A stretch of DNA of 64,000 nt from Gammaproteobacteria bacterium (GTDB lineage Bacteria; Pseudomonadota; Gammaproteobacteria; Pseudomonadales; Pseudomonadaceae). The stretch is from positions 21,579 through 85,578 of the forward strand of contig JAHIWP010000060.1 of the NCBI GenBank assembly GCA_018816095.1, in the 5' to 3' direction. Below the pieces are notes generated by a model, which saw only the letters and a program-made list of their open reading frames with translations, was not told the origin of the DNA and did no database searches. Made by a program: the position numbers and the translations under genes. Positions 33,192 through 40,835 of this stretch are shown in pieces (position 1 is the stretch's first letter; each line of letters opens with the position of its first letter).

Positions 33192-33798
33192 TAGGGAATC
33201 CCCTCTTGATTGTTGTTATTGGGCAATAGGGAGTAGCCCCATTACCAACGTGGCATTTCATACCCGCGATGCAGGTGAAGCCGGTTCACGCAGTCGGAGT
33301 TCTAGACCCCATTACAAAAAGGGCGCATGTCGCAAAACAGTCGCCCGTAAAACGCCTTTAACGGCTTGCCAAGGCCTCGCACGCAAAGCAACGGCACGTA
33401 CTCAAACTACGAATTAATACTGCGCACGGCTGACAACTTAACACCCAAAGAATGCGGAGTTTGCGCACGATCAGCCGCAGAAGCGACTCAACAAATTATA
33501 CCGCCACGCCCTGCCTTTTATTGGCCGCTACCTGTATTAGGTCTAGCCCAATTGCGGCGGCTTGCAGGAACGTCCTGTGGCGCAAACCTAGGCACGGCGT
33601 AAGCCGGGAACGGAATTTAGTGGCAGAGGCATGAACGCTTCTTACAAAATGCTCTGGAGTTTTTACAAAATGCTCCATGCCGGGAACTTCCGGCAAACAC
33701 CTGTTTCAAGCACCGAGCAGCAATGGCGGCGCCATTTACCGCACGACCTACCCGCATAGTACCGATCTAGACAGCCTGAACAAATATTGAGGTGTGTA
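33192..33798. other. 607-bp divergent intergenic region putP / HDOD gene
   Basis: No credible coding sequence was seen; short frames here lack ribosome sites and homology. The stretch is AT-richer than its neighbours near 33390-33540. It must carry the putP promoter on the left and that of the HDOD gene on the right. The only ordered element found is the pair of phased direct repeats at 33642-33675. Confidence 0.6.
33642..33675 (+). repeat. Two 13-bp direct repeats, 21-bp period
   Basis: TTACAAAATGCTC occurs at 33642-33654 and again at 33663-33675. The period of 21 bp is two helical turns, so both copies face the same side of the DNA, as in tandem operator sites. They lie about 125 bp upstream of the HDOD start. 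The binding protein is unknown. Confidence 0.65.
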
Positions 33799-34656
33799 TT
33801 GCAGAGCGAAACATCCGACTACTCCGTCTACCGGCGCTTGGTCTCGCAACTGCTGCAGGGTGAGGAGCAATTACCCAGCCTGCCGACCCTCACGATGGAT
33901 ATTCGCCGCGCCTTGGGCGATCCCAATATTTCGCTCAACGCCTTAACCCGCTTAATCAGTCGCGACCCTGCCCTTAGCGCCTTGCTGATAAAGCATGCGT
34001 CTAGCGCTTTGCACCGTACCACCACGGCACCGAAAACCCTGCTTGAAGTCATCAGCCGGCTCGGCATGGCCGAAGTCGACCGAATCACCATGGCGCATAG
34101 CATCAAAAGCCTGTTTACCCTGCACAGTCCCAAGCATAAACAGCTGTTTATCGAGGCGTGGGAGCGCGTGGTGATCAAGGCCAGCACCTGCACCCTGCTT
34201 GCTCGCCAGCTTGGCCATGTGACGGCGGAACACGCCCTGTTGGCCAGCCTACTCAGTGAAGTCGGCACCCTCGTCGTGCTTTCGGCGTTCCGCAGCGACA
34301 GCGTGCCCCTCTCCAGCGCGCTGTATTACAAGCTGTGCCGCGAATACAGCAAATCGCTGGGGATTATCGTGTTGAAGAAATGGTCGGTGGATAACGACTA
34401 TATCGAGATCATTCGCAACACCGGCAATTGGCAGCACAGCCCGGCAGGTAAGCTGCAATTGCTGGATATGGTCAACCTGGCGCTCTACCACTCGCTCAAG
34501 GAGCACGAGCCAACTGCAGATTTGCCGCCGCTGCAAGAGCTGGCGGCCTATAAGAAGCTGACGCCGCCGCAGAACTCCATCGATGAAAACGGTGAACTCA
34601 GCCTGCTGAGCAGTCACCGCGCCGAGATCCTGGCAATCGCCCAGACCTTACGCTGA
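33799..34656 (+). CDS. HDOD domain protein
   Basis: It has 285 residues from the TTG at 33799, six bases after GAGG; the TTG at 33787 has no ribosome site. An HDOD domain fills about residues 20-215 (LPSLPTLTMDIRRALGDPNISLNALTRLISRDPALSALLIKHASSAL, EVISRLGMAEVDRITMAHSIKSLF). HDOD proteins are catalytically inactive HD relatives that act in signalling, often linked to c-di-GMP or motility. It is a lone gene, convergent with the haemoglobin operon. Specific function unknown. Confidence 0.85.
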   Translation: MQSETSDYSVYRRLVSQLLQGEEQLPSLPTLTMDIRRALGDPNISLNALTRLISRDPALSALLIKHASSALHRTTTAPKTLLEVISRLGMAEVDRITMAHSIKSLFTLHSPKHKQLFIEAWERVVIKASTCTLLARQLGHVTAEHALLASLLSEVGTLVVLSAFRSDSVPLSSALYYKLCREYSKSLGIIVLKKWSVDNDYIEIIRNTGNWQHSPAGKLQLLDMVNLALYHSLKEHEPTADLPPLQELAAYKKLTPPQNSIDENGELSLLSSHRAEILAIAQTLR

Positions 34657-34764: not shown

Positions 34765-35184
34765 TTAGCGATCGATTACTTGCGCCCGCATGGGCGCCAG
34801 CCGCGCCAGCAGGCGATTCTGCGCGGGCATGGGGACGCCCTGGGCACTCATGGCCTCTTGCAGGTTTTCCACCAGGGCATTGAAGTCACTCGGCGTGAGG
34901 TGCTGGCCCTTGTGGCTTTCTTCCATGCTGTCACCACTGTAAGTACAAGGGCCGCCGGCCTCGACGCAAATCTGCTCCACCAACTTGTCGCGCAGACGCA
35001 CGATGTCGATATTTTCAAAGTGCCTAACGATGCGCGGGTCGCCGGCAATATTCAGCAGCATGCCCTCGACGATGCGGGTAATCCCGGCCTGTCCCCCCAG
35101 GTCGCGGTACAGGCTGTCGTCTTTGGCCGGCTGCTGAGCACAGGCCGTCAGGGTCAACACAATGGCCAGCAGCAGGCTGCGCAT
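34765..35184 (-). CDS. Truncated haemoglobin (group I) lipoprotein
   Basis: It has 139 residues. The lipoprotein signal MRSLLLAIVLTLTAC has Cys15 as the lipid site, so the globin should face the periplasm. The trHb fold follows: LYRDLGGQAGITRIVEGML, DPRIVRHFENID, PCTYSGDSMEESHKGQHLTPSDFNALVENL. The proximal haem His is probably His91. Aligned with mycobacterial HbN, the distal Tyr (B10) position reads Leu43. It is the last gene of a four-gene operon, 2 bp after the DUF3034 gene. Possible NO, O2 or redox sensing or detoxification is inferred. Confidence 0.85.
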   Translation of the reverse strand: MRSLLLAIVLTLTACAQQPAKDDSLYRDLGGQAGITRIVEGMLLNIAGDPRIVRHFENIDIVRLRDKLVEQICVEAGGPCTYSGDSMEESHKGQHLTPSDFNALVENLQEAMSAQGVPMPAQNRLLARLAPMRAQVIDR

Positions 35185-35186
35185 GC

Positions 35187-36050
35187 TTAGAAGCTCCCTT
35201 GCACGGACAGGTAAACGCCGTCCTGGTTATCCAGCGTGGCGATTTCCCCCAGGCGCGCATAGGCCAGTACCACGGAGAGATGCTTGTTGGGGAAGTAACC
35301 GAGAAACAGGTCGGCCCAGTCACTCTCCCCGGCAAAGCTGAGGTTGTCCGGCTTCTCGCGGTACTCGACGCCCAGCGCCCAGCGCGGGTTGAACAGCACG
35401 GCAACCGAGCCTTCCTTGAGCACCGAGTGGCGATCACGCCGATCACCGCCAAAGCCCAGCAGGCCCAGCTCATTGGCCCGGCTGTAACGAACACCGCCAT
35501 TGAGCAGCAGGTTGTAGCCCAAGGCACCGCCAAGGATCAGCCGGCTCGCGGTGATATAGCCCTCGGTGTCTTCGCTGCGCTGCGCGCCAATCAGCCGGGG
35601 AATCAGAAAATCCTTCTGGCGCTTGTGCTGAATACCCAGCGACACCTGCGGCAGCTTGTCGTAAATCAGGTCGCCAAACAGGCGCACCTTGAGGCCGAAC
35701 ACATCCTGGCTCAGGCTGTTTTCCGGCAGGTTGAGGTTGCGCGCCAGGGTGCCCAAATCAAAACGCTGGCGGGCGAAGGACAACTCGATTCGGTTATCGA
35801 ATGCGACACCAATACCGGCCACATCCAGGCGGTAGTCGCCGGTTTCCACCCGCGTGGCGAATACATCGGCGCCCCACTCGCCGCGCTCGCCATACCCGGA
35901 CAACACCGCCCAGGGCGTGATGCCACCGCCGGCCGCGCCCTCCAGGCTGCTGGCGCCACCGGTGGCCAGCAGGCGGCCATCGGCCCAGCTCAGGTTAGCC
36001 AACAGGCCCAGCAACAGAAGCACACCGTGAAACGGCTTTAGCATGGTCAA
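35187..36050 (-). CDS. DUF3034 family outer-membrane-like protein
   Basis: This 287-residue protein has a signal peptide (MTMLKPFHGVLLLLGLLANLSWA). The start of the mature protein, LLATGGASSLEGAAGGGITPWAVLSGYG, is the DUF3034 signature. The rest shows alternating amphipathic strands (WALGVEYREKP, DLFLGYFPNKHLSVVLAYARLG) and ends VYLSVQGSF, with terminal Phe as in outer-membrane beta-barrels. It overlaps the GGDEF/EAL gene by 4 bp. Function unknown. Confidence 0.8.
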   Translation of the reverse strand: MTMLKPFHGVLLLLGLLANLSWADGRLLATGGASSLEGAAGGGITPWAVLSGYGERGEWGADVFATRVETGDYRLDVAGIGVAFDNRIELSFARQRFDLGTLARNLNLPENSLSQDVFGLKVRLFGDLIYDKLPQVSLGIQHKRQKDFLIPRLIGAQRSEDTEGYITASRLILGGALGYNLLLNGGVRYSRANELGLLGFGGDRRDRHSVLKEGSVAVLFNPRWALGVEYREKPDNLSFAGESDWADLFLGYFPNKHLSVVLAYARLGEIATLDNQDGVYLSVQGSF

Positions 36051-38383
36051 TGCACCACGTCCGAGGCGGCTGGCGCGTGTTGCGCCAGCCAGGTTTCAAA
36101 GGCTGACGCCGCCAGCGGCCGGCTGATCAGGTAGCCCTGGGCGGTGTCACACTTCCAGCGCGCCAGGAGTTGCAGGCTGCGCTCAAACTCAACGCCTTCA
36201 GCCACCACCTTGAGGCCCAGGCTGTGGCTCATTTCGATGGTTGAACGCACGATCACCGAATCTTCACTGTCATCATCCAGATCGCGGATAAACGATTGAT
36301 CGATCTTCAGCTCCTGCACCGGCATACGCTTGAGCTGAGCGAGGGACGAGTAACCCGTACCAAAGTCATCCACCGACAAGCTGATACCGCACTCGCGCAA
36401 GCCATGCAGCACCTGCAGAGCGACCTCCGGATTGAGCATCACCCCGCTTTCGGTAATCTCAAAAATCAGCTGTGCGGCCGGCACTTGGTATTCAGACAAC
36501 AATTGGCTGACCCGCGCCGGTAACTGCGGGTCGATCAGGTCCTCGGTGGAGATATTCAATGACACCTGCACGTAAAGGCCGCGCCCGCCCCACTCACGCA
36601 ACTGGCGCATAACGTCTTCTAGCACCCAGGAGGTCAACAGCTGAATGCTGCCGGTGCGCTCGGCCAGCGGAATAAACTCCCCAGGCGAAACCATGCCCAG
36701 CTCGGGGTGTTGCCAACGCAGCAAGGCCTCTGCCTGCCGCACCCGCCCGCTGGCAATATCCAACTTCGGTTGATAGTGCAGCAGCAGCTCGGCCTTGCTC
36801 GGCGCGTGGCGTAAATCGCGAATCAGGCGAATCTGCCGCTGCTGGGCATCATCGCGCCCCCGCTGGTAGACCTGTAGATGGCTGGCCATACCGGCCGCAT
36901 CCTGCATCGCGATGGCCGCCCGGCGCAGCAGTTCTTCCGGGGCGTTGCCATCCACCGGGTAACTGGCAATGCCAATGCGGCAATCCAGTGCTACATCATG
37001 GCTGGCCACGCGCAAAGGTTTGAGCAGCAATTGCTGCAGCGTGTCGGCAATGCCCACGGCGCTGTCGCTGTCGGCGTTTTCCAGCAGCAGGAGAAACTCG
37101 TCACCGATGATCCGCGCCACGCTATCGCCGGGGCGCAAAATTCCCTGCAGTTGCCGGCTAAGCTGCTGCAGCGCCAAGTCGCCGCCCTCCGGCCCGAGGC
37201 TTTCATTGACCGCGCGAAAGTTCGCCACCCCTAAATACAGCAACGCCATCGGCCGCCCCGCCGTAATGGCACTGCCCAGGCGCTCCAGCGCCAGCGTGCG
37301 GTTGGGCAAGCCGGTGAGCGCATCATGCAAGGCATTGTGCGCCAACTGCCGTTCACGCTCGGCAATGCCTTGCTGCATGGCCTTGAAGGCCATGGCCAAA
37401 CGCCCTAATTCGTCAGCGCGGTGCAGGTCCAGATCGGCCTGATAATCCCCCTGACGCACTCGTTCGGCGACGGCAGCCAGTTGCTGCACGGGTTGCGACA
37501 CCGAGCGCGCTAACAACAGGGCGCCGCTTAGTGACGCGGTCAGTGCCACCAGGGCGATCAGCAGAATATTTTGATCAAGCGACGCGAACGCCTGCTGCGC
37601 CTGACTCAGGGATTTGTGCAGCAGCGCACGCACCTCAAACCCGTCGCCACTGGCCAGTACCAGTGCTTGGTTAAGGTAGCGTTCGCTGCCGATCAAGCTC
37701 ACTGCATCATTCGTCAGGTGAGTCATCCCCTCCTGTACCTGCTCGCGCTGCGCCGCTGGCAAGGTACTGATCCAGATATCAGCCCCCCCCTTCTGGGTCG
37801 CCAACAGGGTTAAGTCCAGGTGGGTCAGTTCGCGCAGCTCGGCAGCAAAGGCATCATCCACCTGAAAGCCCATCATCACTCGGGCAATCGGCAACGGTGC
37901 GCTAACGGTGGCCTGCACCAGCAGGTAAATTTTCTCGGCAATCGGCATCAGGAAAATCTGCACGCCTTCGCGCTGGCGCTGCATCACCTGGGCACTCAAG
38001 CGCTGGGCTGTGGCACCGCTAATCTGCCGGTCGCTGCTGACTTCCAGGTTGCCGTCTAGGGACAGCATCATCACCACACTGGCATTGATCCGCGCACCGT
38101 GATTGGCCAACGCCGAACGAATGGTCTCGGTGTCACCGCTGGCCACGGCGTCCTTAAAACCGAAGTCGGCGGCCAACACCTGAACGGCATCGTGCAACTG
38201 CCGGCCACGCACTTCGAGCAACTGCTGAAACACCAGGCTGCCGACATCCAGCTGCTCGCGTGCCTGGCTGCGCACCGCTGCATTAGTGGCGGTTTGTACG
38301 GCTACATAGAGCGCGCCGACCACAATGAGCAGCAGCAGAACCAATACACCGGCAATTCGCGCCTGGAAGCTATTGCGCAGCAT
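36047..38383 (-). CDS. Membrane GGDEF/EAL protein with periplasmic sensor (probable c-di-GMP phosphodiesterase)
   Basis: It has 778 residues from the ATG at 38383 (AAGAAGG 6 nt upstream). It has an N-terminal helix, a CACHE/CHASE-like periplasmic domain (about 35-275), a second helix (about 277-300), HAMP, then GGDEF and EAL. The GGDEF motif is degenerate (IIGDEF) but an RxxD I-site (RPGD) lies exactly five residues before it. The EAL domain keeps EALLRW, SLNIS, FEITES, DDFGTGYSS, LKIDQSF, EGVE and QGY. So phosphodiesterase activity with a regulatory GGDEF is the likely state. It overlaps both neighbours. Confidence 0.88.
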   Translation of the reverse strand: MLRNSFQARIAGVLVLLLLIVVGALYVAVQTATNAAVRSQAREQLDVGSLVFQQLLEVRGRQLHDAVQVLAADFGFKDAVASGDTETIRSALANHGARINASVVMMLSLDGNLEVSSDRQISGATAQRLSAQVMQRQREGVQIFLMPIAEKIYLLVQATVSAPLPIARVMMGFQVDDAFAAELRELTHLDLTLLATQKGGADIWISTLPAAQREQVQEGMTHLTNDAVSLIGSERYLNQALVLASGDGFEVRALLHKSLSQAQQAFASLDQNILLIALVALTASLSGALLLARSVSQPVQQLAAVAERVRQGDYQADLDLHRADELGRLAMAFKAMQQGIAERERQLAHNALHDALTGLPNRTLALERLGSAITAGRPMALLYLGVANFRAVNESLGPEGGDLALQQLSRQLQGILRPGDSVARIIGDEFLLLLENADSDSAVGIADTLQQLLLKPLRVASHDVALDCRIGIASYPVDGNAPEELLRRAAIAMQDAAGMASHLQVYQRGRDDAQQRQIRLIRDLRHAPSKAELLLHYQPKLDIASGRVRQAEALLRWQHPELGMVSPGEFIPLAERTGSIQLLTSWVLEDVMRQLREWGGRGLYVQVSLNISTEDLIDPQLPARVSQLLSEYQVPAAQLIFEITESGVMLNPEVALQVLHGLRECGISLSVDDFGTGYSSLAQLKRMPVQELKIDQSFIRDLDDDSEDSVIVRSTIEMSHSLGLKVVAEGVEFERSLQLLARWKCDTAQGYLISRPLAASAFETWLAQHAPAASDVVH

Positions 38384-39056
38384 CGCGGGCCTTCTTAAAT
38401 GCATCGCCAAAGGCGCTGGCCGGCGCACGCGGGGCAACCTGGGCAGCCGGGGCTTGTATGGCCAAGGTGAAGCGCTGCTGGTTACCGCCCTCGCTCAACT
38501 GCACCTCACCGGCCGCCTGCGGCAACATCTCTGGGGCTTGTGGGTGCCACAGGCTGGCCGAGTAAGTACCCGCCGGCAGTTGGTCAATACGCAAGCGCCC
38601 CTGGGCATCGCTCACAGCAAACCAAGGATCGTCGGTGACATAGACATAGCCCAACATCCAGTCGTGGATATTGCAGCCAAGCACGACCACACCGGGCTTA
38701 TCGAAGATCACCGGTTCACTTGGCGTGCCCTGATACAAGCGCAATTCAAAGCGCTTGGCTGGTGAGAAGGAATAGACGTGGTGGCGAATATTGTCGCTAT
38801 TGGGAAACTTCACCGACGTGCCGCTGCGCACCGCCAGCACATTCGGTACGAACTGCTGCGAGCGTTGATCCATAATCGCAGCCGCCGATGCAGTCGGGGC
38901 ATCGGCGAAGCTGCGCAAACTAAGTACGGCATTCGCAAGCGGCTGGCCTTGGCTGTCCAGCAGTTCAGCCTGCAAGCTGGCGGCATGCAGCGGCGCGCTC
39001 AGCAGCAAGAAAATCAGCAGCGAGCGCGCAAACGATAAATACAGGTATTGGCTCAT
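38370..39056 (-). CDS. Cupredoxin-like periplasmic protein
   Basis: It has 228 residues from the ATG at 39056. The signal peptide SFARSLLIFLLLSAPLHAA is clear. A plastocyanin-like domain with likely type 1 copper ligands follows: His92 or His93 (NIRHHVYSFSPAKRF), Cys128, His131 and Met134 (LGCNIHDWML). A carboxypeptidase-regulatory-like strand region (VSDAQGRLRIDQLPAGTYSASLWHP) comes next. Such proteins are often called methylamine utilisation proteins in databases, but no methylamine genes are near. It is first in the four-gene operon and overlaps the GGDEF/EAL start by 14 bp. Confidence 0.82.
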   Translation of the reverse strand: MSQYLYLSFARSLLIFLLLSAPLHAASLQAELLDSQGQPLANAVLSLRSFADAPTASAAAIMDQRSQQFVPNVLAVRSGTSVKFPNSDNIRHHVYSFSPAKRFELRLYQGTPSEPVIFDKPGVVVLGCNIHDWMLGYVYVTDDPWFAVSDAQGRLRIDQLPAGTYSASLWHPQAPEMLPQAAGEVQLSEGGNQQRFTLAIQAPAAQVAPRAPASAFGDAFKKARDAAQ

Positions 39057-39232
39057 CAAGACGACTCGTACGCGAGGGGCACACTTTATTAGGAACAGCA
39101 TCCATGCCTGACACATTGAGTGCCGCAGTGAGCCACAGCTTAGCCGCCTGCCTGCAGAAGTTCACCTTATGTCGGCCGCCATCCCCCGTTGTATCGCGGC
39201 GAGCCAGATGCAGCGCAGGCTAGAAGGGCCGG

Positions 39233-39985
39233 TTACTCGGCGCTGCGCAGGCGCTTGGGCGTCAGGCCGAGGTAGCGACGCATCGCCGTGGTGAGCGCGC
39301 TCTGGCTGGAGAAACCGCACTCCTCGGCGATGCGGATAAGCGGCAACCCACTCTCGCGCAACAAGCGCACTGCGCGATCAAGGCGGGTTTTCAGCAGGTA
39401 CTGGTGCGGCGTAAGGCCGACACTGTCCTTGAACTGCGCGTGAAAATGACTAGGGCTCAAGCAAGCCACCTGGGCCAGCTCAGCCACGCTGATGCGCCGA
39501 GCCAGGTGCTCGACGATATAAGTATCGAGTCGTTCTAAATTAAGCGGGCCAATGGCGCGCGCCTGCTGCTCACCAAACAGTCGCAGGTGCAAAGCCCTCA
39601 GCAAAACGCCACCGAGCGCCCGCGCCAACAGCGGATCAGAGCCGTAACGCTCCAGCTCGGCGCCGGCATAGCTCAGCAGGTTCTGGAAATCGGCATCCAG
39701 CTGCGGGTAGCGCGGTGTTTCAAACAACCCCGTCAGCAGCTGCAGGTCCTCACTGGATACACCCTGCTCATCCAGGTCGATGATCAACATGCGGTTATCG
39801 CCCATACCGGCGAACTGATGATCGGCATCCCCGGGCACCAGGCAGGCACGCATGCGGCACACCTCGCCGCCACGACCATTGACCTCAAACTCCGCGCGCC
39901 CAGCCAGCGACAACACCAGCTGGTGATGGTCGTGGGTGTGTTCATGGGCTTGGTCATCAAGACGTATCAAGCGCGCGTTGAGCAT
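39233..39985 (-). CDS. AraC-family transcriptional regulator, PruR-like
   Basis: It has 250 residues. A cupin-type sensor domain (HEHTHDHHQLVLSLAGRAEFEVNGRGGEVCRMRACLVPGDADHQFAG) precedes a C-terminal double helix-turn-helix (RRISVAELAQVACLSPSHFHAQFKDSVGLTPHQYLLKTRL, LIRIAEECGFSSQSALTTAMRRYLGLTPKRLR). In P. aeruginosa an AraC regulator of proline catabolism (PruR) lies between the icp and putAP genes. The same order with icp and putP here supports that identity. The gene is upstream of, and parallel to, the cupredoxin operon, which it might also control. Confidence 0.75.
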   Translation of the reverse strand: MLNARLIRLDDQAHEHTHDHHQLVLSLAGRAEFEVNGRGGEVCRMRACLVPGDADHQFAGMGDNRMLIIDLDEQGVSSEDLQLLTGLFETPRYPQLDADFQNLLSYAGAELERYGSDPLLARALGGVLLRALHLRLFGEQQARAIGPLNLERLDTYIVEHLARRISVAELAQVACLSPSHFHAQFKDSVGLTPHQYLLKTRLDRAVRLLRESGLPLIRIAEECGFSSQSALTTAMRRYLGLTPKRLRSAE

Positions 39986-40439: not shown

Positions 40440-40835
40440 ATGCTCGCTCCCCGCCTAACGCTGATGTTTGGCCTTGTGCTGCTCAGTGCCTGCGCACAAA
40501 AACCCAACAGCGTCAGCCTGGAGCAGAACCAGCAGAGCAAATGCCCGCTATCACTGCACATTGGCCAGCAATTTATCCTGCGCTTGCCGAGCAACCCGAC
40601 TACTGGCTTTCGCTGGTTGATGCGCGACTCGGCAACACAGGTTCTGCAAAGCCTCGGCCCGGAGGTCTACAGCAACCCTGAAGATGCCGGCCTGGTCGGC
40701 AGCGCCGGGGTTTCTACCTGGCGCTTTCAGGTGGTTAAGGCCGGCGAAGGCCAACTGGCCCTCACCTATGAACGCCCCTGGGAAGTCGGCGTAGTGCCTG
40801 CCCAGCGCTTCGACTGCACACTCAAGGCGCAGTGA
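40440..40835 (+). CDS. icp: Inhibitor of cysteine peptidase, chagasin family I42 (lipoprotein)
   Basis: It has 131 residues. The lipobox LLSAC puts the lipid Cys at residue 19. The inhibitor loops are visible: NPTTGFRW (loop 1), the GSAGVSTWRF segment (loop 2) and YERPWE (loop 3), all chagasin hallmarks. The protein should block papain-like cysteine peptidases in the periplasm or at the surface. P. aeruginosa carries an icp gene in the equivalent place. Confidence 0.88.
   Translation: MLAPRLTLMFGLVLLSACAQKPNSVSLEQNQQSKCPLSLHIGQQFILRLPSNPTTGFRWLMRDSATQVLQSLGPEVYSNPEDAGLVGSAGVSTWRFQVVKAGEGQLALTYERPWEVGVVPAQRFDCTLKAQ

What the first reader, a model, noticed from the sequence alone, without database searches (positions are those of the whole stretch)
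34765..39056. Tight operon: cupredoxin + membrane GGDEF/EAL + DUF3034 barrel + haemoglobin lipoprotein
Four genes overlap or abut (14-bp and 4-bp overlaps, then a 2-bp gap), so they should be made together. Three products carry export signals, and the fourth has a large periplasmic sensor domain joined to c-di-GMP enzymes. A copper-type electron carrier and a haem globin, both outside the cytoplasm, next to a c-di-GMP phosphodiesterase suggest that a periplasmic redox, copper, NO or oxygen signal is passed to c-di-GMP. The DUF3034 protein may be the outer-membrane part. I know of no described function for this set. Seen: genes, motifs, overlaps. Inferred: the signalling model.
Basis: partly seen in the sequence, partly recalled or inferred. 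Interest (0 to 1): 0.75.

Follow-up and report, generated by a model that had tools for sequence, protein, structure and literature searches.

The report
Copper-protein-coupled envelope sensor operon
Four neighbouring bacterial genes make a copper protein, a membrane receptor, an outer-membrane-type protein and a haemoglobin that look like one signalling unit, and relatives keep the copper protein and receptor together even when the receptor's output enzyme is of another kind.

Summary
At 34765-39056 (minus strand) lie a type-1 cupredoxin (CUP), a dCache-HAMP-GGDEF-EAL receptor, a DUF3034 protein and a group-I truncated globin lipoprotein, tightly packed. All four lie together in 30 of 39 DUF3034 genomes among 398 sampled in the phylum.

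The set is two pairs. DUF3034 and globin are adjacent in 39 of 39 (12 of 18 loci in a class sample that includes divergent DUF3034s). CUP has a dCache-type sensor 13-149 nt downstream in 61 of 73 places, and the enzyme behind the sensor varies: GGDEF-EAL 52, class III cyclase 5, Ser/Thr kinase 3, histidine kinase 1. The sensor domain was found in 7 of 7 tested genomes with CUP and 0 of 9 without. Copper ligands are invariant in 150 of 150 CUPs; checked EAL catalytic residues in 132 of 132; GGDEF is canonical in 20 of 132.

Best explanation: CUP is the periplasmic input partner of a receptor family with exchangeable outputs; here it controls a c-di-GMP phosphodiesterase, with DUF3034 and globin as an outer-membrane accessory. 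The signal is unproven. The globin's apolar haem pocket argues against NO dioxygenase or O2 storage. Ten literature searches showed no description of the set.

The parts
38370..39056 (-). CUP: secreted type-1 cupredoxin plus C-terminal CarboxypepD_reg-like stretch (plasmid relatives are annotated methylamine utilization protein); copper ligands H92, C128, H131, M134
36047..38383 (-). membrane receptor: dCache_3 periplasmic sensor, HAMP, degenerate GGDEF (IGDEF), EAL with all checked catalytic residues
37598..38296 (-). periplasmic sensor domain, of the subfamily shared by EAL, cyclase and histidine-kinase receptors next to cupredoxins
35187..36044 (-). DUF3034 protein, signal peptide and C-terminal Phe (by eye): predicted outer-membrane beta-barrel (no structure available)
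34765..35184 (-). group-I truncated globin lipoprotein (lipobox LTAC, by eye), proximal His91, Cys73/Cys80 pair, apolar distal pocket
39137..39164 (-). conserved promoter-like element TGAACTT-N14-CTAAGCT upstream of the operon

Best explanation
A cupredoxin-coupled transmembrane receptor. SHOWN BY SEQUENCE: a secreted cupredoxin with invariant type-1 copper ligands is encoded next to a membrane receptor whose periplasmic dCache-type domain belongs to one subfamily, while the cytoplasmic output differs between relatives (EAL, cyclase, His kinase, Ser/Thr kinase); in this operon the output is an EAL phosphodiesterase with its checked catalytic residues intact and an atypical GGDEF motif; DUF3034 and the globin form a second pair. 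INFERRED: the cupredoxin docks on the dCache domain, and its metal or redox state sets the domain's conformation, which HAMP passes on; in this version an active receptor lowers c-di-GMP and favours motility or dispersal. DUF3034 with the globin held at the outer membrane is an accessory that supplies or reports the signal to the cupredoxin, most likely a small diatomic (NO more than O2) or electrons from outside; this last step is the least certain.
For: Pairing: 61 of 73 cupredoxin places have the sensor domain 13-149 nt downstream; 26 of 35 where no DUF3034 is in the locus. Output exchange: EAL 52, cyclase 5, Ser/Thr kinase 3, His kinase 1; a periplasm-only profile trained on EAL receptors scores the cyclases 150-198 bits and the His kinase 135. 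L062 keeps DUF3034, cupredoxin and dCache but carries a Ser/Thr kinase. Sensor domain in 7 of 7 cupredoxin genomes and 0 of 9 without. Copper ligands invariant in 150 of 150. Checked EAL residues 132 of 132; canonical GGDEF 20 of 132. DUF3034+globin adjacent in 39 of 39 phylum genomes. A barrel-like ORF stands near the cupredoxin in 18 of 35 loci lacking DUF3034, against 3 of 146 background ORFs. Partial rate correlations: cupredoxin-sensor 0.27 (0.11 to 0.41), cupredoxin-DUF3034 0.36, cupredoxin-globin 0.32; sensor-globin and sensor-DUF3034 near 0.
Against: 12 of 73 places have no sensor directly downstream: L214 ends at a contig edge, L257 has a receptor upstream, and in G535 (L229/L119) the receptor lies elsewhere; L213, L218, L231, L232 pair the cupredoxin with a barrel-like ORF alone. 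Of the 13 phylum genomes with a strong cupredoxin and no DUF3034, 9 show the receptor beside it. No interaction, metal binding or activity was measured, and structure prediction was off. The Ser/Thr kinase sensors match the periplasm-only profile weakly (L223 43.5, L259 31.3 bits) and are one clade on the cupredoxin tree. Partial correlations are not specific (globin-EAL 0.26, DUF3034-EAL 0.27 and cupredoxin-GGDEF 0.20 also exclude 0). Of 20 fetched cupredoxin homologues below 130 bits only 2 have a sensor match within 150 nt. Five of 18 class loci have DUF3034 without a globin beside it.
Confidence: 0.6

Rival explanations
1. Electron-transfer or detoxification operon: cupredoxin and globin move electrons or handle NO or peroxide outside the cytoplasm, and the EAL protein is a separate regulator in the operon; no docking of cupredoxin on the receptor.
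For: Two redox-type cofactor proteins in one operon; a weaker cupredoxin relative lies beside a dihaem-peroxidase gene (CCP_MauG at L237), and another near a similar-looking ORF (L239, not scanned).
Against: The cupredoxin keeps a receptor where DUF3034 is absent from the locus (26 of 35) and when the output enzyme differs; the globin's apolar pocket lacks the Tyr-B10/Gln-E11 of HbN.
Confidence: 0.2
2. Copper sensor (a special case of the best explanation): holo versus apo cupredoxin tells the receptor how much copper is in the periplasm; DUF3034 or the porin-like barrel admits copper or a copper complex.
For: Of 19 cupredoxin positions checked, six are invariant in 150 sequences: the four copper ligands, N86 and D88; barrel-like genes accompany 18 of 35 cupredoxins that lack DUF3034.
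Against: A 2-mismatch scan found CueR-like sites in 12 of 132 upstream regions with no consistent position; copper sensing does not need a globin. Not excluded.
Confidence: 0.25
3. Gene order is kept by shared descent or co-transfer only, with no functional link between cupredoxin and receptor.
For: Most rows are from one phylum, and output labels cluster on the cupredoxin tree.
Against: Neighbouring ORFs differ in length and strand; at least three layouts; at least 5 output changes on the cupredoxin tree with the pairing kept (many branches are weakly supported); sensor domain 7 of 7 against 0 of 9.
Confidence: 0.07

Closest known systems
Periplasmic-protein-coupled receptors NspS-MbaA, LuxP-LuxQ, TorT-TorS (recalled, not fetched)
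   Same: A secreted partner gene beside a membrane receptor; MbaA is a GGDEF-EAL protein.
   Different: Here the partner is a type-1 cupredoxin rather than a solute-binding protein, and related sensor domains drive four kinds of output.
YfiB-YfiR-YfiN (recalled). NCBIfam: the window receptor matches DgcN/YfiN at 120 bits, cut-off 325; a HK_near_YfiR_like model matches a cyclase and a kinase receptor at 41 and 30 bits, cut-off 194
   Same: Outer-membrane part, periplasmic protein and inner-membrane HAMP receptor controlling c-di-GMP; YfiR has been linked to redox (recalled).
   Different: No YfiR or YfiB family match for the cupredoxin, DUF3034 or globin; phosphodiesterase instead of cyclase; copper protein; DUF3034 plus globin.
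Shewanella PdeB (PMC9061725, passages read)
   Same: Membrane GGDEF-EAL phosphodiesterase with a periplasmic receptor domain for an unknown signal; its GGDEF domain has a non-cyclase role.
   Different: PdeB has a PAS domain after HAMP; Pfam shows none in the window protein.
Nitrite-reductase copper domains, pseudoazurin, amicyanin; MauL (recalled)
   Same: Type-1 ligand pattern H...CxxHxxM; profile E 4e-6 (nitrite reductase) and 0.004 (pseudoazurin, amicyanin).
   Different: Longer protein with a second domain; encoded beside a receptor, not with an amine dehydrogenase.
Mycobacterium HbN, group-I truncated globin
   Same: Globin family and proximal His; E 2e-23.
   Different: Secreted or lipidated; Tyr-B10 and Gln-E11 replaced by apolar residues; Cys pair absent from HbN.

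Membership tests
Type-1 copper cupredoxins | His, Cys, His and Met ligands in order | tested here: met
   150 of 150 unique sequences; profile match to nitrite reductase, pseudoazurin and amicyanin chains
Type-1 copper cupredoxins | binds copper, blue colour | not testable with these tools
   needs protein
EAL phosphodiesterases | catalytic and metal residues present (list recalled) | tested here: met
   E552, N610, E642, D672, D673, K693, E729, Q749 in 132 of 132
Active diguanylate cyclases | [GSA]G[DE][DE]F motif | tested here: not met
   IGDEF in the window; canonical in 20 of 132
Group-I truncated globins | Bac_globin family, proximal His F8, Phe CD1 | tested here: met
   His 135 of 135, Phe 133 of 135
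NO dioxygenase or O2-storage truncated globins | polar distal residue (Tyr-B10, Gln-E11 as in HbN; roles recalled) | tested here: not met
   B10 L/V/I/M in 134 of 135 (Asn in 1); E11 L/F/I/M in 135 of 135
DUF3034 (PF11231) | profile over cut-off | tested here: met
   371 bits, cut-off 25
Outer-membrane beta-barrel | barrel structure | not testable with these tools
   structure prediction off; only signal peptide and C-terminal Phe seen by eye
Periplasmic-protein-coupled receptor | secreted partner gene adjacent to a receptor with a periplasmic domain | tested here: met
   61 of 73
Periplasmic-protein-coupled receptor | physical docking | not testable with these tools
   needs binding assay or complex prediction
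YfiBNR | YfiR and YfiB family members | tested here: not met
   no such family among matches for cupredoxin, DUF3034 or globin at E <= 0.01; the receptor's NCBIfam list was cut at 25 of 44

The most novel reading that the evidence does not exclude
A receptor family whose ligand is a redox protein: the oxidation or metal state of a periplasmic cupredoxin is read by a dCache domain and passed to exchangeable outputs (c-di-GMP phosphodiesterase, nucleotide cyclase, His kinase, Ser/Thr kinase); in the DUF3034 version an outer-membrane barrel and an NO-selective, outer-membrane-anchored globin feed electrons or NO to it, giving a wire from the cell surface to c-di-GMP.
Probability: 0.25. Interest if true: 0.87.

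Novelty: new variant of a known kind. Interest (0 to 1): 0.7.

Why it matters
It would give a function to DUF3034, to a secreted truncated-haemoglobin subfamily and to cupredoxins annotated 'methylamine utilization protein', and would add a copper protein to the periplasmic partners that drive receptors. Because related sensors are fused to several outputs, one assay (swap the output, read the input) could identify the signal. The operon occurs in Pseudomonas, Xanthomonas and Caballeronia, many of them plant- or soil-associated (recalled), where biofilm and motility decisions matter.

Tried and rejected
FNR/ANR (10 of 132), CueR-like (12 of 132) and Fur (0 of 132) patterns upstream of the cupredoxin gave no consistent site; a loose sigma54 pattern with 3 mismatches hit 90 of 132 and was judged uninformative (the 132 regions were not de-duplicated). 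A sigma-S-like reading of the conserved element (18 of 75 unique Pseudomonadaceae upstream regions against 0.21 in shuffles) is only a suggestion. PDB search with DUF3034 gave three sequences, none with a stretch passing on its own.

Papers: two were opened, passages only: PMC9061725 (PdeB) and PMC8304167 (CmpA, a different GGDEF-EAL protein). All others were seen as listings only, including the two that mention DUF3034, the four and five with cupredoxin plus GGDEF or c-di-GMP, 20 of 37 and 8 of 18.

Choices that affect counts: the 130-bit limit for cupredoxins was set after the data were seen; at 140 bits it is 60 of 72. Twenty places below 130 bits were also fetched, out of many listed; 2 of them (L248, L268) have a sensor-profile match within 150 nt, three more a weak one at 526-541 nt (L252-L254, 28-39 bits), and L237, L238 and L260 (G117, 129.4 bits) one at 0.8-1.9 kb. 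The sensor profile was trained on EAL receptors of DUF3034 loci, so 26 of 35 without DUF3034 is the independent figure. L058 is counted as EAL although its receptor frame is broken. In the tree L062 was labelled EAL and 6 output changes were counted; with the right label it is 5, and the three Ser/Thr kinases are one clade. The 80 named loci were chosen by DUF3034 and are not used as a sample.
Full report
WHAT IS THERE. The four ORFs are as described: cupredoxin 38370-39056, receptor 36047-38383, DUF3034 35187-36044, globin 34765-35184, all minus strand, spaced by a 14 bp overlap, a 2 bp gap (or a 4 bp overlap with a TTG start) and a 2 bp gap. Pfam gives dCache_3-HAMP-GGDEF-EAL, DUF3034 and Bac_globin. 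The cupredoxin has no Pfam family over cut-off, but its profile matches nitrite-reductase copper domains, pseudoazurin and amicyanin. The nearest named DUF3034 relatives are from Pseudomonas.

IS IT CONSERVED. DUF3034 was found in 21 of 59 genomes of the same genus, 18 of 369 of the class and 39 of 398 of the phylum (the samples overlap and include the window's genome). I read the neighbourhoods of 73 stretches plus the window. In the 39 phylum genomes the globin match lies within about 260 nt of DUF3034 in 39, the cupredoxin lies in the same locus in 33, and all four lie together in 30; L068, L104 and L121 have the cupredoxin but no sensor beside it. In six (G668, G492, G620, G535, G795, G632) the cupredoxin is not in the locus; in five of those a strong cupredoxin lies elsewhere in the genome, and G492 has none. 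In the class sample, 12 of 18 DUF3034 loci have the globin; one (L074) is cut by a contig end, and five (L062, L070-L073) have none in the locus. Among 80 named loci chosen by DUF3034, 60 have the four in the window's order; these are mostly Pseudomonas and Xanthomonas relatives, with one Acidobacteria bin. Layouts differ: cupredoxin-receptor-DUF3034-globin in Pseudomonas and Xanthomonas, two divergent pairs in some lineages including Novosphingobium, and DUF3034-globin-cupredoxin-receptor in Caballeronia. Neighbouring ORFs differ in length and strand from locus to locus.

TWO PAIRS, NOT ONE FOURSOME. In the same 398 genomes the globin subfamily (140 bits or more) occurs in 41 genomes, including all 39 with DUF3034; the next match is at 96 bits. 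The cupredoxin (140 bits or more) occurs in 38 of the 39 and in 13 others. In 9 of those 13 the cupredoxin stands beside the membrane receptor (L211, L212, L215, L217, L219-L223); L213, L216, L218 show none and L214 ends at a contig edge.

THE OUTPUT IS EXCHANGEABLE. I collected every cupredoxin place of 130 bits or more from three searches: 73. In 61 the sensor match begins 13-149 nt after the cupredoxin match on the same strand: 35 of 38 with DUF3034 in the locus and 26 of 35 without. By Pfam and EAL-domain searches, 52 of the 61 are EAL receptors (one, L058, with a broken frame), five are class III cyclases (L212, L215, L246, L255, L258), three are Ser/Thr kinases (L062, L223, L259) and one is a histidine kinase (L256). 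L062 keeps DUF3034, cupredoxin and dCache but has a kinase output and no globin found. A profile of the periplasmic part alone, trained on EAL receptors, scores the cyclases 150-198 bits and the His kinase 135, but two kinases (L223, L259) only 43.5 and 31.3. The ML tree of the cupredoxins needs at least 5 changes of output (many branches are weak, and starred branches alone force 2 for the cyclases). Two weaker cupredoxin relatives (114-122 bits) lie near hybrid histidine kinases (L237, L238).

SPECIFICITY. A profile of 26 sensor domains was run in 16 whole genomes chosen by cupredoxin status: found once each in 7 of 7 with the cupredoxin (185-252 bits in six, 53 bits in the kinase genome G367) and in 0 of 9 without; chance of that split is 1 in 11,440 (by hand, ignoring kinship).

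EXCEPTIONS. Twelve places lack the sensor directly downstream: L229, L104, L232, L213, L214, L216, L218, L231, L233, L068, L121, L257. L214 ends at a contig edge; L257 has a receptor upstream with a barrel-like ORF between; L229 is in G535, whose receptor stands with DUF3034 and globin elsewhere (L119); L213, L218, L231, L232 have the cupredoxin with a 403-420 aa barrel-like ORF only. Below 130 bits, 2 of 20 fetched places have a sensor match within 150 nt.

OUTER-MEMBRANE SLOT. By a strict rule (length, signal-like start, aromatic C-terminus with alternating pattern) 18 of 35 cupredoxin loci without DUF3034 hold a barrel-like ORF nearby, against 3 of 146 other ORFs in the same stretches. Pfam matches of some of these to Porin_4 or OMP_b-brl are below cut-off. 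So a barrel-like gene often goes with the cupredoxin, and DUF3034 may be one form of it.

RESIDUES. Cupredoxin ligands H92, C128, H131, M134: 150 of 150 unique sequences. EAL: the catalytic and metal residues checked are invariant in 132 of 132 (second receptors at some loci included); canonical [GSA]G[DE][DE]F in 20 of 132, IGDEF in the window. Globin, 135 unique cores: proximal His 135, Phe CD1 133, Cys73 and Cys80 134 each; the one exception (L151, P. matsuisoli) has lost both, as expected of a disulfide. B10 is L/V/I/M in 134 (N in 1), E7 L/F/V/I/A, E11 L/F/I/M in 135, where HbN has Tyr, Leu and Gln. A lipobox-like motif occurs in 109 of 143 globins (not de-duplicated); several others show a plain signal instead. 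An apolar pocket disfavours O2 stabilisation and NO dioxygenation and would be compatible with NO or CO binding (from general knowledge of haem sensors, recalled).

RATES. On 43 loci, partial correlations of pairwise distances are 0.27 for cupredoxin-sensor, 0.36 for cupredoxin-DUF3034, 0.32 for cupredoxin-globin, and near 0 for sensor-globin and sensor-DUF3034. This would place the cupredoxin between receptor and outer-membrane pair, but globin-EAL (0.26), DUF3034-EAL (0.27) and cupredoxin-GGDEF (0.20) are also above 0, so the support is weak.

REGULATION. A promoter-like element TGA[ACT]C-N15-19-CTANNCT lies upstream in 18 of 75 unique Pseudomonadaceae regions against 0.21 in shuffles; in the window 39137-39164. 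The pattern was written after seeing an alignment of 16 upstream regions, and its sigma factor is not assigned.

MECHANISM. Shown: conserved pairing, differing output, intact copper site, intact phosphodiesterase site, atypical cyclase motif. Inferred: docking of cupredoxin on dCache; signal carried by copper or redox state; lowering of c-di-GMP here; outer-membrane pair feeding the cupredoxin. The input is the open question. I rate the general receptor model 0.6, copper sensing (a special case of it) 0.25, an electron-transfer operon with a merely co-encoded EAL protein 0.2.

KNOWN SYSTEMS. It works like NspS-MbaA or LuxP-LuxQ and, in layout, like YfiBNR (all recalled), with a copper protein as the periplasmic partner. 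PdeB of Shewanella (PMC9061725, passages) differs by a PAS domain. My ten literature searches (open-licence PMC only, nearly all seen as listings) showed no description of this set; subscription papers were not searched.

Noticed in passing
L058 (G085) and L173 (Pseudomonas lactucae): The receptor gene is broken into three frames in both; in L058 the DUF3034 frame also holds a stop. Degraded copies or sequencing errors; left as they are.
   Followed up: no
L198 (Xanthomonas phaseoli): One 1073-aa frame matches both the receptor and DUF3034, and no globin was picked up beside it.
   Followed up: no
L075 (G668): DUF3034 reduced to about its last two thirds beside an intact-looking globin; a cupredoxin and receptor lie on another contig (L224).
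   Followed up: partly
L082, L084, L086, L088, L098, L099, L157, L160, L161, L163, L164, L167, L171, L172: A second dCache-GGDEF-EAL gene sits directly upstream of the cupredoxin, so some Pseudomonas carry two receptors around one cupredoxin (some loci of the two collections are the same strain).
   Followed up: no
L237, L239: Weaker cupredoxin relatives near a dihaem-peroxidase gene (CCP_MauG, L237) or a similar-looking ORF (L239); in L237 a hybrid histidine kinase follows.
   Followed up: partly
window 39233-39985 (-): AraC-type regulator on the same strand directly upstream; its 3' end is also upstream of the cupredoxin in several close relatives, so it may belong to the control of the operon.
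   Followed up: partly
window 33787-34656 (+): HDOD-domain gene convergent with the operon.
   Followed up: no
window 40440-40835 (+): Small lipoprotein with an NPTTGFRW motif, which looks like a chagasin-type protease inhibitor (motif recalled).
   Followed up: no
L210: Complete four-gene operon on a contig binned as an Acidobacteria genome: transfer or mis-binning.
   Followed up: no
L269 (Comamonas aquatica plasmid): Cupredoxin-EAL pair preceded by a DUF4394 gene, between a helicase gene and type IV pilus genes.
   Followed up: no
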